DNA of 64,000 bases from Nonomuraea gerenzanensis (GTDB lineage Bacteria > Actinomycetota > Actinomycetes > Streptosporangiales > Streptosporangiaceae), in assembly GCF_020215645.1 (NCBI RefSeq), contig NZ_CP084058.1, positions 3,968,001 to 4,032,000 of the forward strand. The letters are read 5' to 3'. A program made the position numbers and the translations under genes. The notes below the pieces were generated by a model. That model had not been told where the DNA came from and searched no databases. It worked only from the letters and a program-made list of their open reading frames with translations. Below, piece after piece: positions 28,831-33,672 of the stretch; position 1 is the first letter of the stretch, and every line of letters begins with the position of its first letter.

Positions 28831-30225
28831 GTGTCAACGGGGGATTGGGTCGAGGCCGACCTCGACGAGCTGGAGATCGACGAGCAGGAGCACCACGGCG
28901 TGCCGCTGCCGGTCGTGGCCATCGTCGGGCGGCCGAACGTCGGCAAGTCCACGCTGGTCAACCGCATCATCGGCCGTCGTGAGGCGGTCGTCGAGGACGT
29001 GCCGGGCGTCACCCGCGACCGCGTCACCTACGACGCCAACTGGCGCGGCCGCCGCTTCACCGTGGTCGACACCGGCGGCTGGGACCCTGACGCCACCGGC
29101 ATGAACCTGCGCATCGCCGAGCAGGCCCAGGTCGCCGTGGAGCTGGCCGACGTGATCGTGTTCGTCGTGGACGCCACCGTGGGCGCCACCGACGCCGACG
29201 AGATCGTGGGCTCGGTGCTGCGGCAGTCCGGCAAGCCGGTCATCCTGGCCGCCAACAAGGTCGACAACCAGCAGCTGGAGCTGGAGGCCGCCGCGCTGTG
29301 GGCGCTCGGCCTCGGCGAGCCGTACCCTGTCTCGGCGCTGCACGGCCGCTCCAGCGGCGACCTGCTCGACGTGGTGCTCGAGGCGCTGCCCGAGACGCCC
29401 GAGGTGACCTTCGGCGCCGAGCGCGGGCCCGCCCGCGTCGCGCTGCTCGGCAAGCCCAACGTCGGCAAGTCCTCCCTGCTCAACAAGCTGGCGGGGGAGG
29501 AGCGGGTGCTGGTCGACCCGATGGCGGGCACCACCCGCGACCCCGTGGACGAGCTGATCGAGCTGGGCGGGCGCACCTGGCGCTTCATCGACACCGCCGG
29601 CATCCGGCGGCGCGACCGCGAGCTGCAGGGCGCCGACTTCTACGCCGCCATGCGCACCCGCGCGGCGCTGGAGCGCACCGAGGTGGCGATCGTGCTGATC
29701 GACGCCAGCGAGCCGCTCACCGAGCAGGACCTGCGCATCATCGGCCTGGTCATCGAGTCGGGGCGGGCCATGGTGGTGGCCTTCAACAAGTGGGACCTGG
29801 TCGACGAGGACCGGCGCTACTACCTGGAGAAGGAGATCGACCGGCAGCTCGTCCGCACCCCGTGGGCGCTGCGGGTCAACATCTCCGCCAAGACCGGCCG
29901 GCACGTCGACCGGCTCGTCCCGGCCCTGGAGAAGGCGCTCGACTCCTGGTCCACCCGGGTGCCGACGGCCCGGCTCAACGCGTTCCTCACCGAGCTGGTG
30001 CAGCAGACGCCGCCGCCGGTGCGCGGCGGCAAGCAGCCGAAGATCCTGTTCGCCACGCAGGCGTCCGTCGAGCCGCCCAAGTTCGTGCTGTTCACCTCCG
30101 GGTGGCTGGAAGACACCTACCGCCGCTTCATCGAGCGCCGCATCCGCGAGGAGTTCGGCTTCGCCGGATCCCCGATCGAGGTGACGATGAAGATCAGGGA
30201 AAAGCGCGCGAAGAAGGACAAGTGA
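28831..30225 (+). CDS. der: Ribosome-assembly GTPase Der (EngA)
   Basis: The 464-residue tandem GTPase has a first G domain with [25 protein letters not shown] and AANKVD, and a second with [25 protein letters not shown] and [10 protein letters not shown]-terminal KH-like domain follows ([40 protein letters not shown]). It acts in 50S subunit maturation. A short acidic N-terminal extension ([18 protein letters not shown]) precedes the first G domain. The GTG start 28831 was taken. The stop TGA is followed by the T-box leader of aspS2. Confidence 0.96.
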
Positions 30226-30250
30226 CTGGGGTACGATTCAGCGCAACGCG

Positions 30251-30500
30251 TTGACGGAGACGAGTAGCCAGCGGGTCCGCACGGGCCGAGAGAGCCGCCG
30301 GTAGCTGCGAAGGCGGTGCCGTGCCCCGCTGGTGAAGACACTCCCGAGTGCGGGGAGGAAATGCCCCGCCGGTCTGACCCCCGTCATCGGGTCGCCGAGG
30401 CCGCCTCCGTCGTGGGGCGGCGAAAGTGCGGTGGCACCGGGAGCTCCCTTCTCCCCCGCACTCCCAAGGGGTCATGCACTTCCTTCATCGAGGAGCTGTA
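30251..30500 (+). promoter_or_regulatory. T-box riboswitch, aspartate-specific, upstream of aspS2
   Basis: Stem I is readable. CCAGCGGG (30268-30275) pairs with CCCGCTGG (30325-30332), GCACGG (30279-30284) with CCGTGC (30319-30324) and GCCGCC (30294-30299) with GGCGGT (30312-30317), with a GAGAGA-type bulge and distal loop between. The specifier loop is TGAAGACA (30333-30340), giving codon GAC (Asp) at 30337-30339. The antiterminator or antisequestrator is AGTGCGG (30425-30431) paired with CCGCACT (30456-30462). Its T-box bulge TGGCACC has UGGC to pair with tRNA 3' GCCA, fitting the G73 of tRNA-Asp. AGCTCC (30442-30447) can instead pair with GGAGCT (30492-30497), the ribosome binding site. 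No U-run exists, so control is probably translational. Confidence 0.9.
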
Positions 30501-31763
30501 ATGATCTCTCGTGTCATGTCGGCGGAGCTGTCCGAGCACGCCGGCCAACGAGTGACGATCGCCGGCTGGGTCCATCGCCGCCGGCGACTCAAATCCGTGT
30601 CCTTCCTCGTCGTCAGGGACCGTACCGGGCTGGCGCAGGCCATCTCGGGCGGTGACCTGCCGCCCGAGGAGAGCGTCGTCCGGGTCACCGGCACGGTGGC
30701 CGCCAGCGAGCAGGCACCCGGCGGCTACGAGCTGGTCTCGCCCGAGGTCGAGGTGCTCGCGCAGCCGTGCGAACCGCCGCCGTTCGACCTCTACCGGCCC
30801 GTGGTCGGGGCGGCCCTGCCGGCCGTGCTCGACCACGCGCCGGTCGCGCTGCGGCACCCGCTGCTGCGCGCCGGGCTGGAGATCTCGGCCGCGAGCGTGG
30901 CCGGGTTCCGCGAGACGCTCGACCGGCTCGGCTTCACCGAGATCCACACACCCAAGATCGTCGAGTCGGCCACCGAGTCGGGCGCGAACGTCTTCGGCAT
31001 CGACTACTTCGGCCGGCCCGCCTACCTCGCCCAGTCGCCGCAGTTCTACAAGCAGGCGATGGCCGGGGTGTTCGAGCGGGTCTACGAGGTGGGCCCGGTC
31101 TTCCGCGCCGAGCCGCACGACACCGTGCGGCATCTGGCCCAGTACACCAGCCTGGACGCCGAGCTGGGCTTCGTCCGCGACCACCGGGACGTGATGGTGG
31201 TGCTGCGGGAGGCCGTGGCGGGCATGCTGGAGTCCGTACGCGGCCGCGCCGGCGCCGCGCTCGGCCTGCTCGGCGTCGTCCCGCCCGCGGTGCCCGCCGA
31301 GATCCCCGCCATCCACTTCACCGAGGCGCAGCGGCTGACCTCCAGCGACGAGTCCGACCTGGCGCCCGCCCAGGAGCGGTGGCTGTCGGAGTGGGCGGAG
31401 CGGGAGCACGGGTCGCAGTTCCTGTTCGTCACCGGGTTCCCGATGTCGAAGCGGCCGTTCTACACCCATCCGGACCCGGCGCGGCCCGCGTACTCCAACG
31501 GGTTCGACCTGCTCTTCCGGGGGATGGAGCTGGTGACCGGGGGGCAGCGGCTGCACCGGTACGAGGACTACGTGCGGGCGCTGGGCTCACGGGGGGAGGG
31601 GACTGCGGCGTACGAAGGGTATCTGCAGGCCTTCCGGTACGGGATGCCGCCGCACGGTGGGTTCGCGCTCGGGCTGGAGCGGTGGACGGCGCGGCTGACC
31701 GGGGCGGCCAACGTCCGGCAGACCACCGCGTTTCCGCGCGACCTGCACCGGCTCTCACCGTGA
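30501..31763 (+). CDS. aspS2: Archaeal-type aspartyl-tRNA synthetase (AspRS2)
   Basis: The 420-residue class IIb synthetase has an OB-fold anticodon domain (AGQRVTIAGWVHRRRRLKSV, FLVVRDRTGLAQAI) and a catalytic domain. The latter shows TPKIVESATESGANVFGIDY, AQSPQFYKQAMAGVFERVYE, motif 2 VFRAEPHDTVRHLAQYTSLD, VTGFPMSKRPFYTHPD and motif 3 GGFALGLERWTARLTG. Length, order and the missing GAD insertion place it with archaeal/eukaryotic AspRS, not the roughly 590-residue bacterial enzyme. It is probably a second AspRS beside the usual aspS. It could be non-discriminating or resistant to an AspRS inhibitor. ATG 30501 follows GAGGAG. A T-box with an Asp specifier controls it. Confidence 0.92.
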   Translation: MISRVMSAELSEHAGQRVTIAGWVHRRRRLKSVSFLVVRDRTGLAQAISGGDLPPEESVVRVTGTVAASEQAPGGYELVSPEVEVLAQPCEPPPFDLYRPVVGAALPAVLDHAPVALRHPLLRAGLEISAASVAGFRETLDRLGFTEIHTPKIVESATESGANVFGIDYFGRPAYLAQSPQFYKQAMAGVFERVYEVGPVFRAEPHDTVRHLAQYTSLDAELGFVRDHRDVMVVLREAVAGMLESVRGRAGAALGLLGVVPPAVPAEIPAIHFTEAQRLTSSDESDLAPAQERWLSEWAEREHGSQFLFVTGFPMSKRPFYTHPDPARPAYSNGFDLLFRGMELVTGGQRLHRYEDYVRALGSRGEGTAAYEGYLQAFRYGMPPHGGFALGLERWTARLTGAANVRQTTAFPRDLHRLSP

Positions 31764-31835: not shown

Positions 31836-33587
31836 TCAGCGGCGTGGCATCAGGACGGCGACCGCCGCGCCCAGCAGGCAGATGAACGCCGTCACCAGGA
31901 ACATCTCGGTGTACTCGGTGTGCAGGGCCGCCTGCACCTTGGCGGTGTAGTCGGCCAGTCGCCGCTGGTACGTCTCCCGATCCACGCCGAACGGGAGCGG
32001 CGTGTCCAGGTGGGCCGTCAGCGACTGGAACCGGTAGAACCCCCACGCCGACACCGCCGCGATGCCGATCAGCATGCCCATCATCCTGGCCACCACGACC
32101 GCCGCCGACGCCACCCCGTGCTGCGCCGCCGTACTCGCGCGCAGCACCGCCGACGACACCGGCGCGATCACCAGCCCCAGCCCCAGCCCGGCGAGCACCA
32201 GGTCACGATCCATCGCCGGCCCCGCCCCGGCCAGGTCGAGCGGCCAGTGGCTCATCAGCCAGTAACCCCCGGCCGCCAGCGCCATGCCCGCCACCGCCAC
32301 GACCCGCTCACCCAGCCTGCGCGCCAGCAGCCCGCCCAGCAGGGCCGCCACCGCCAGCGCCGCCAGGAACCTGGCCAGCACCAGCGACGCGTCCAGCGCC
32401 TCCTTGCCGAGCAGGGTCTGGGCGGTGATCTGCACGAACACCATGGTGACCAGCAGCGCGGCGCCGGCCAGGAAGCTGACGGCGAGGGTGGCCAGGAGCG
32501 GTCGCTTGCGGGTGGTGGCGAGGTCGAGCAGGCGTACGGGGGAGCGGATCTCCCACCAGACGAAGGCCACGGCCACCAGCACGCCGGCCACTATCACGGG
32601 CGGGCCCCAGGGTGGGAGGACGGCGGTGGCGGGGTCGGGGTTGTACAGGCCCACGACTAGGAGCGCCAGGGCCAGGGCGAGCAACACCCCGCCCACCACG
32701 TCCACCCGCTTCGCCGCCACCCCGTCGGCGGCCGTCGTCTCGGCACTCGCTACCTCGCCGGGCGCCGTCACGCCAGCAGCCGCCGTCTTGGCGCTCGCTA
32801 CCTCGCTGGGCGCCGTCACGCCTGTGGCCGCTGTCTCGCCGCTCCCCACCTCGCCGGCGGCTGTCACCTGGCCGGCCGCAGCCTTGCCGGGGGCCGACGG
32901 GCCGGGCGTCACGGCACCGACCCTCATCTCGCCGGGTGCGGACACCTCACCGGGCGTCGCTTCCGGTCCGCCCGCCCGGACCGCGTTCGGGCGATGGGGT
33001 GGGATCGTGAGGTGGATGGCGACGGCGGCCAGGGCGGCGAGCGGGACGTTGACCCAGAAGATGGCATGCCACCCACCAAGCTCCACCCCCGCCACCACCG
33101 CACCGGGCACCCCCGCCAGCAACCCTCCGTACAACGGCCCCAGCGCACTGCCCAGCTCCTGCGCCGCCCCCACAGCCCCCAGGGCGACCGGCCGCTCGCG
33201 CTCCTCCCACAGATCCCCGATGAGCGCCATCGTGATCGGCAGCAGCGCGCCTCCGGCCACCCCCTGCACGGTACGCCCGGCCACCACCATCACCTCCCCG
33301 GCCGCCAGCGCCGTCAGCACCGAGCCGAGGGCGAAGGCCGCCAGGCAGGCGTGGATGAGGGGCCGCCGGCCGTACCGGTCGGAGAGCTGGCCGAGCAGCG
33401 GCATCGCGGCGACGTACCCGAGCAGGAAGCCCGTGACGATCGGGGTGGCCCGCTCCAGGTGGTTGAGCGGGATGCCGACGTCCTCGGCGATGTCGATCAG
33501 GACCGTCACCACCACGTACGCGTCCAGCGCCGCCAGCAGCACCACCGCGCCGCCGGTACCGAGCACCACCCGCCGGGCGCGCCTCAT
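31836..33587 (-). CDS. MFS transporter, DHA2/P55-like, 14 TM
   Basis: This is a roughly 583-residue major facilitator of the 14-helix DHA2 class. Motif A is [20 protein letters not shown] after TM2. [20 protein letters not shown] is TM4 with motif B, and multiple later hydrophobic helices end with [14 protein letters not shown] roughly 100-residue low-complexity Ala/Thr/Val/Glu loop, including three 48-bp tandem repeats ([20 protein letters not shown]), interrupts the protein near the middle. The ATG at 33587 (with GAGGG upstream) was preferred; a GTG at 33647 would add 20 Pro/Arg-rich residues. It lies directly downstream of an LprG-type lipoprotein on the same strand, the order of the mycobacterial lprG-Rv1410c (P55) lipid-export operon. 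Confidence 0.87.
32745..32888 (-). repeat. Three 48-bp tandem repeats in the MFS cytoplasmic loop
   Basis: Units begin at about 32745, 32793 and 32841, each coding 16 residues of the form VTAPxEVASAxTAAxG. The first two are nearly identical and the third has diverged. The repeat is in frame, so copy-number changes would alter only loop length. Confidence 0.7.
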
Positions 33588-33672
33588 CGCACCGCCCTCA
33601 CGTCGCAGGACATCCAGGACGGCGGGTGGCGGCGGCCGGTCGCGCACGGCATGTCAGACAAGCCGGCGGGCC

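What the first reader, a model, noticed from the sequence alone, without database searches (positions are those of the whole stretch)
30251..30503. Asp-specific T-box riboswitch that appears to control translation of an archaeal-type AspRS
Three independent elements agree. The specifier GAC (30337-30339) sits in the expected place after a stem I with three perfect helices. The T-box bulge has UGGC, which pairs with the GCCA end of tRNA-Asp (G73). AGCTCC (30442-30447) in the antisequestrator loop can pair with GGAGCT (30492-30497), which overlaps the Shine-Dalgarno. Both alternative structures cannot form at once and no U-run exists, so ribosome access rather than termination is controlled. Translational T-boxes in actinobacteria are best known for ileS; one guarding a second, archaeal-like aspS is unusual. 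It may keep a reserve AspRS silent until uncharged tRNA-Asp accumulates, for example under an AspRS inhibitor.
Basis: partly seen in the sequence, partly recalled or inferred. Interest (0 to 1): 0.85.

Follow-up and report, generated by a model that had tools for sequence, protein, structure and literature searches.

The report
Asp T-box riboswitch before second AspRS
The leader of a spare aspartyl-tRNA synthetase gene in a soil actinomycete is a tRNA-sensing RNA switch that probably controls translation, and its relatives share an extra pairing next to the switch that I did not find described for such switches.

Summary
Window 30242-30462 matches the Rfam T-box model (RF00230: 63.5 bits, E 1.3e-13, below the gathering score of 93). 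An orthologous leader in Actinocrispum reaches 93.1. It precedes an archaeal-type AspRS gene in a Nonomuraea-type genome that also has a bacterial AspRS, a GatB, and no AsnRS over the cut-off. Specifier GAC and bulge UGGC fit the genome's tRNA-Asp(GUC, G73). An open pattern reads GAC in 131 of 134 leaders with a readable long Stem I. No terminator was found, so translational control is likely. One feature goes beyond the finding: the A2 apical loop (CCCUU) can pair with AAGGG 4 nt past helix A1, with compensatory changes (CCCAA/UUGGG, CCCUG/CAGGG, UCCCG/CGGGG). I read it as a pseudoknot that helps lock the ON state. The pairing has comparative support, modest within groups; its role is inferred.

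The parts
30242..30462 (+). T-box leader, match to RF00230 (Stem I to antisequestrator)
   Evidence: cmscan 63.5 bits, E 1.3e-13, below gathering 93
30337..30339 (+). specifier GAC (Asp), followed by the conserved purine A30340
   Evidence: Rfam alignment; open pattern reads GAC in 131 of 134 distinct leaders where it could be applied
30381..30386 (+). CCGTCA, the F-box of Stem IIA/B
   Evidence: read in sequence; F-box letters as given in PMC7583486 passages
30400..30421 (+). Stem III (approximate ends)
   Evidence: Rfam alignment
30426..30461 (+). antisequestrator: A1 30426-30431/30456-30461, T-box bulge 30432-30438 (UGGC 30432-30435), A2 30439-30442/30452-30455 (plus a likely G30443-C30451 pair)
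   Evidence: ten of ten pairs in 179 of 179 parsed leaders; both-side changes at one A1 and one A2 pair
30446..30450 (+). 5' strand of the A2-loop:tail pairing (CCCUU)
   Evidence: changes in step with 30466-30470 across clades
30466..30470 (+). 3' strand of the A2-loop:tail pairing (AAGGG), 4 nt after helix A1
30458..30464 (+). anti-Shine-Dalgarno GCACUCC, mostly in the A1 3' strand; can pair with 30492-30499 (GGAG, bulged C, UGU)
   Evidence: 99.6% of cells; longer in some relatives
30467..30509 (+). local hairpin of the Nonomuraea type holding Shine-Dalgarno and AUG
   Evidence: predicted in 41 of 41 sequences of this type, segment folded on its own; consensus fold
30492..30495 (+). Shine-Dalgarno GGAG
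   Evidence: 5 nt before the ATG at 30501
30501..31763 (+). aspS2, archaeal-type (non-discriminating type) AspRS, 420 aa
   Evidence: NF003483 524.3 bits over cut-off 353; TIGR00458 330.9 under cut-off 368.4; nearest solved chain T. thermophilus AspRS2 1n9w

Best explanation
The leader is a translational T-box riboswitch that reads tRNA-Asp and controls an archaeal-type AspRS. When uncharged tRNA-Asp binds (GAC:GUC at the specifier, UGGC:GCCA at the bulge), the antisequestrator A1/A2 forms and takes up the anti-Shine-Dalgarno GCACUCC. The A2 apical loop CCCUU then pairs with AAGGG just downstream as an H-type pseudoknot, which also takes the 5' strand of the sequestering hairpin, so the Shine-Dalgarno and AUG are freed and AspRS2 is made. 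When tRNA-Asp is charged, the antisequestrator fails, GCACUCC pairs with the Shine-Dalgarno region and/or the local hairpin forms, and translation stops. Supported by comparison: T-box identity, specifier, bulge, antisequestrator and the loop:tail pairing. Inferred: ligand binding, direction of the switch, the ON-state role of the pseudoknot, and what AspRS2 is for.
For: T-box model match (an orthologous leader passes gathering). tRNA-Asp GUC with G73 in the genome. Open pattern: GAC in 131 of 134 distinct leaders; a narrower pattern that admits only GAC or GAT finds GAC in 140 and GAT in 0 of 150. Bulge UGGC in 139 and UGGU in 11 of 150. No terminator. Anti-Shine-Dalgarno against Shine-Dalgarno: summed longest helix 351 over 69 combinations, shuffled mean 322.9, highest 350, 0 of 3000 as high. 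Loop:tail helix: fixed register 102 of 130 pairs over 26 distinct combinations, shuffled mean 85.6, highest 100, 0 of 20000 as high; the best helix stays inside the A2 loop in 73 of 74 combinations, the exception being L066. Its 3' strand lies in the predicted start-site hairpin of the Nonomuraea type and of L039, L069 and L075.
Against: The shuffle tests ignore the tree. Within two groups the loop:tail signal is weaker (0.038 and 0.024), with control stretches at 0.97 and 0.90. Within the Nonomuraea type the loop:tail helix never varies, so there it is untested. With a full 6-bp A1 the 4-nt linker cannot span the stacked helix (31.5 A against 26 A); it can if A1 keeps 4 bp (idealised helix, recalled constants). 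With the 5' half of the antisequestrator removed, L047, L053 and L073 fold the loop:tail pairing as a plain hairpin, so it could compete with A1/A2 rather than coexist. Folding puts the antisequestrator and the start-site hairpin together in the window's own sequence, so how tRNA opens that hairpin is not settled. The anti-Shine-Dalgarno helix is 4 unbroken pairs or fewer in 30 of 69 combinations. L055 of Amycolatopsis pairs its Shine-Dalgarno with the A2 loop and A2 3' strand instead.
Confidence: 0.7

Rival explanations
1. Classic translational T-box with no functional pseudoknot: the antisequestrator's 3' strand alone switches the Shine-Dalgarno, and the A2-loop:AAGGG complementarity is a by-product of C-rich and G-rich stretches or an inherited relic.
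For: The anti-Shine-Dalgarno pairing has cross-clade support. Most leaders share CCC in the loop and GGG in the tail, so complementarity is partly fixed by composition; within-group tests are modest.
Against: Both-side changes at the same register: CCCAA/UUGGG in L181 and L184, CCCUG/CAGGG in L039 and L170, ACCCA/UGGGA (four pairs) in L175. AA of AAGGG is invariant in the Nonomuraea type although the start-site hairpin uses at most one of the two.
Confidence: 0.3
2. The loop:tail helix belongs to the OFF state or competes with the antisequestrator: alone as a hairpin, or with the anti-Shine-Dalgarno:Shine-Dalgarno helix as an H-type pseudoknot that hides the ribosome site.
For: The strands of the two helices lie next to each other in many leaders (sequence). 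L047, L053 and L073 fold it as a hairpin once the antisequestrator's 5' half is removed, and in L066 it extends through A2's 3' strand into a 14-bp hairpin.
Against: In the predicted sequestering hairpins of L039, L069, L075 and of the Nonomuraea type the AAGGG-like strand is already paired elsewhere. The helix does not reach into A2's 3' strand in 73 of 74 combinations, as a competitor would. In the L047 fold with this hairpin the Shine-Dalgarno is left mostly open.
Confidence: 0.2
3. One reading: AGCTCC in the A2 loop pairs with GGAGCT over the Shine-Dalgarno.
For: 97.2% of cells pair in the Nonomuraea-type alignment; with Watson-Crick pairs only it beats all 3000 shuffles over all clades; L055, L065 and L083 pair A2-loop letters with the Shine-Dalgarno in predicted folds.
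Against: No both-side changes; one pair broken in 5 of 35 rows; with wobble pairs allowed 0.038 of shuffles are as high; it does not by itself compete with helix A1.
Confidence: 0.1

Closest known systems
Translational T-box riboswitches of actinobacterial ileS (PMC1262725, passages; Sherwood 2015 known only from reference lists, not held)
   Same: T-box core and Shine-Dalgarno sequestration by a hairpin competing with the antisequestrator; this genome's own ileS leader looks to be of that kind (read by eye).
   Different: Asp specifier, aspS2 as target, a short A2 with a loop that can pair downstream, and mostly a long Stem I. A long Stem I is not unique: PMC7583486 says a few translational T-boxes have it (passage). 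The genome's ileS leader has an A2 loop read as GCCA with no such partner.
T-box of a Clostridium acetobutylicum aspS/gatCAB operon (PMC2494555 figure legend says one of its three aspS genes is T-box regulated, passage; Saad 2012 and 2013 seen only as references)
   Same: T-box controlling one of several AspRS genes.
   Different: By recall it answers to tRNA-Asn and tRNA-Glu and acts on transcription; here the specifier is GAC and no terminator is found.
Rfam RF00230 (T-box leader)
   Same: Whole model matched: Stem I, Stem II, IIA/B, Stem III, T-box bulge.
   Different: Scores under the gathering cut-off in the window; the 3' sequestrator and the loop:tail helix are outside the model.

Membership tests
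T-box riboswitch (RF00230) | covariance model match at gathering score | tested here: not met
   window 63.5 bits against 93; met by the orthologous leader in L044, 93.1 bits; E 1.3e-13 is far beyond chance, so the family claim rests on the features below
T-box riboswitch (RF00230) | specifier codon in Stem I matching the gene's amino acid | tested here: met
   GAC in 131 of 134 distinct leaders by open pattern; gene is an AspRS
T-box riboswitch (RF00230) | UGGN bulge pairing with tRNA NCCA | tested here: met
   UGGC; tRNA-Asp has G73
T-box riboswitch (RF00230) | antiterminator/antisequestrator helices A1 and A2 | tested here: met
   10 of 10 pairs in 179 of 179 parsed leaders; both-side changes at two pairs
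T-box riboswitch (RF00230) | binds uncharged tRNA and responds to charging | not testable with these tools
   needs binding and reporter assays
Translational T-box | no terminator; Shine-Dalgarno held in a structure competing with the antisequestrator | tested here: inconclusive
   no terminator; Shine-Dalgarno paired in 41 of 41 Nonomuraea-type folds but not in all of the 39 representatives folded (e.g. L047, L073, 3' segment alone); which helix competes in Nonomuraea is undecided
Archaeal-type non-discriminating AspRS | NCBIfam model over cut-off | tested here: inconclusive
   NF003483 met (524.3 over 353); TIGR00458 aspS_nondisc not met (330.9 under 368.4); charging of tRNA-Asn not testable here

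The most novel reading that the evidence does not exclude
T-boxes of the aspS2 type carry an expression platform not described in the passages I could read: the apical loop of antisequestrator helix A2 forms a conserved H-type pseudoknot with the tail a few bases past A1, so that tRNA-stabilised A1/A2 pulls open a downstream Shine-Dalgarno/AUG hairpin that its own helices do not overlap. The same knot is kept although Stem I varies from long to very short and the sequestering hairpin differs between clades.
Probability: 0.4. Interest if true: 0.72.

Novelty: new variant of a known kind. Interest (0 to 1): 0.57.

Why it matters
It extends translational T-boxes from ileS to an Asp-specific leader kept across Nonomuraea, Micromonospora, Actinoplanes, Amycolatopsis and others, and puts a spare, archaeal-type AspRS under tRNA-Asp control in a genus whose 39 searched genomes all keep the bacterial enzyme. 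If the loop:tail pseudoknot is real, it suggests how a T-box can switch a start-site hairpin lying wholly downstream of its antisequestrator, and it can be tested with a small set of compensatory mutants. The series also contains leaders with long and with apparently very short Stem I, useful for asking what Stem I length does.

Tried and rejected
Rejected: (1) A 10-bp helix between 30346-30355 (GAGTGCGGGG) and 30454-30463 (CCCCGCACTC), present in the minimum-energy fold: relatives L029 and L030 keep Stem II by a compensatory change (GCGAGG/CCTCGC) that breaks this helix, so it does not look selected. (2) Intrinsic termination: no site found. (3) CrfA and ASdes matches (23.1 and 16.2 bits, under their cut-offs of 38 and 40) taken as chance. 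(4) Within-clade covariation to choose among the three Shine-Dalgarno pairings: no both-side changes, undecidable. (5) Two tRNA-Asp patterns found nothing because they demanded C after GTCA, where the genome has A; a looser one found it.

Literature: 9 searches. T-box + aspS2 gave 0 papers; T-box + Micromonospora + riboswitch + tRNA synthetase gave 0. T-box + antiterminator + pseudoknot + loop + helix A2 gave one review (PMC7583486); the pseudoknot passages shown to me are on Stem IIA/B (passages only). PMC10651847 likewise (passages). The library holds open papers only; Sherwood 2015 and the paper I looked up as Vitreschak 2008 were not held. TBDB scanned actinobacterial reference genomes (PMC7778990, passages) but could not be queried here, so these leaders may be listed there.

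L053 was left out of alignment A2 (36 of 37 distinct rows used) for its long insert. The specifier count used a pattern that admits only GAC or GAT; one search repeats it with an open pattern.

Full report
What is there. The window lies in a genome of 12,066,052 bases, taken as Nonomuraea because the Nonomuraea loci are 76-91% identical to its AspRS2 while other genera are lower. Between der (28831-30225) and an archaeal-type AspRS gene (30501-31763) lies a 275-base leader. RF00230 matches 30242-30462 over the whole model, 63.5 bits, E 1.3e-13. This is under the gathering score of 93, so a default scan misses it. Of eight relatives scanned, the Actinocrispum leader (L044) reaches 93.1, five others (L047, L055, L059, L060, L066) match at E up to 0.01, L059 only in its Stem I half, and two (L069, L075) do not match.

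Specificity. GAC 30337-30339 is followed by A and the CUCC strand of Stem I. The bulge is UGGC. The genome has a tRNA-Asp with anticodon GUC whose acceptor stem is followed by G73 (read). Among 150 distinct leaders an open pattern (GAA, any three letters, A or C, 30-80 nt after AGAGAG) could be applied to 134; 131 have GAC there and 3 give another triplet only. One leader that the pattern cannot read, L053, has GAC followed by G when read by eye. Many leaders also give a second triplet further on, from Stem II. A narrower pattern (GAC or GAT only) finds GAC in 140 of 150. Of the ten it misses, L066 has GAC in place by eye and nine have no long Stem I but a TGACG word that could be the specifier of a very short one (L062, L069, L070, L075, L083, L084, L181, L182, L184); such a word is not rare by chance, so this is a suggestion. 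The bulge is UGGC in 139 and UGGU in 11 of 150.

Gene and genome. The protein passes NF003483 (aspartate--tRNA(Asn) ligase) but not TIGR00458. Its nearest solved chain is Thermus thermophilus AspRS2, 1n9w. The genome also has a bacterial AspRS over cut-off, a GatB over cut-off and no AsnRS over cut-off, so Asn-tRNA is presumably made by amidation. All 39 genus genomes searched have the bacterial AspRS over cut-off; 35 of 37 other same-genus genomes in another draw have AspRS2, one of them (G895) in two pieces. At E 1e-100 AspRS2 is in 242 of 300 genomes of the family of G204 (which I take for Micromonosporaceae from its likeness to named loci), in 85 of 297 of the window's family, and in 2 of 396 drawn across the phylum, the window's own included. 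Extra AspRS genes in Actinomycetales were reported in 2014 (PMC4206432, passages). The spare enzyme is therefore not new; its control is the point.

Antisequestrator. Of 81 leaders in the first set 80 parse; with the second set 179 of 181 loci parse, all with ten of ten A1/A2 pairs. The parser chooses the best-pairing spacing, so the changes on both sides, at one A1 and one A2 pair in 36 rows and more across clades, carry more weight than the count. No terminator-like site lies in 30150-30600.

What hides the ribosome site. None shows both-side changes, so this clade alone cannot decide. Across clades the A1-strand pairing changes in step in many leaders: ACCUCC/GGAGGU in Micromonospora and Actinoplanes, GCACUCCC/GGGAGUGC in L042, CGCACUCC/GGAGUGCG in L072, GCACCUCC/GGAGGUGU in L039. 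It is weak in others: 30 of 69 combinations have four unbroken pairs or fewer, among them most Nonomuraea (with the bulge), some Micromonospora with GGAGCA, and Amycolatopsis. The cross-clade shuffle test gives 351 against a mean of 322.9 with 0 of 3000 as high for it, and 408 against 394.8 with 0.038 as high for the A2-loop pairing; with Watson-Crick pairs only, both beat all 3000 shuffles. These tests ignore the tree. The genome's ileS T-box uses the classic arrangement by my reading (CCUUCACGC with GCGUGGAGG).

The extra helix. The A2 loop carries CCCUU and the tail carries AAGGG four bases after A1. Over 26 distinct combinations in one fixed register, 102 of 130 pairs form (shuffled mean 85.6, highest 100, 0 of 20000 as high). 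Changed pairs at the same place: CCCUG/CAGGG (L039, L170), CCCAA/UUGGG (L181, L184), UCCCG/CGGGG (Micromonospora), ACCCA/UGGGA (L175, four pairs). Seven of the 26 combinations form three pairs or fewer, L182 only two. Within the Micromonosporaceae set and within the rest the test is modest (0.038 and 0.024), with 0.97 and 0.90 in control stretches. When the register is left free, the linker from A1 to the helix is 3-7 nt, 4 in 42 of 76 distinct pairs of loop and tail. The best helix stays inside the A2 loop in 73 of 74 combinations, L066 being the exception, as a knot that coexists with A2 would. A 4-nt linker needs A1 shortened to about 4 bp to reach; 4 bp is what the Rfam consensus shows for A1.

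How it probably works. I take the antisequestrator plus this knot as the ON state. In the window's clade it and the bulged A1-strand pairing are the conserved links I found between A1/A2 and the start-site hairpin, and its 3' strand is part of the predicted start-site hairpin there and in L039, L069 and L075. Against this, L047, L053 and L073 fold it as a plain hairpin when the antisequestrator's 5' half is removed. That it forms on tRNA binding is inference. An OFF-state or competing helix and a by-product are live rivals.

Verdict.

Noticed in passing
L093 about 1400-1690 (G000:C1:3839289-3839455, - strand): A second T-box in the genome, apparently before ileS (40.4 bits, under the cut-off), read by eye as having the classic anti-Shine-Dalgarno arrangement and an A2 loop GCCA without a downstream partner. 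The ileS label is from my reading, not from a family search.
   Followed up: partly
L062, L069, L070, L075, L083, L084, L181, L182, L184 upstream of the aspS2 relative: Leaders with no recognisable long Stem I but the same kind of antisequestrator; Stem I seems reduced to a very short hairpin with TGACG.
   Followed up: partly
L066, 3688-4000: An Anaerolineae MAG carries the leader before an AspRS2 relative; there the loop:tail helix extends into A2's 3' strand and makes a 14-bp hairpin, unlike the others.
   Followed up: partly
G895:C6:162667-163808: In one same-genus genome aspS2 matches in two pieces, as if broken; G851 and G928 have no AspRS2 match at 1e-100.
   Followed up: no
window 31836-33647 (-): An MFS efflux-type gene (best match TIGR00711, DHA2 family) converges on aspS2; the 25 NCBIfam matches shown are all under their cut-offs.
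   Followed up: no
L055, L056, L058, L061, L064, L071, L073 upstream of the aspS2 relative: Amycolatopsis leaders keep the loop:tail letters but lack the A1-strand anti-Shine-Dalgarno; in the sequence GAGAAGG (GAGAAG in L073) near the start complements the A2 loop and A2 3' strand. The predicted fold shows it for L055 but not for L073; the other five were not folded.
   Followed up: partly
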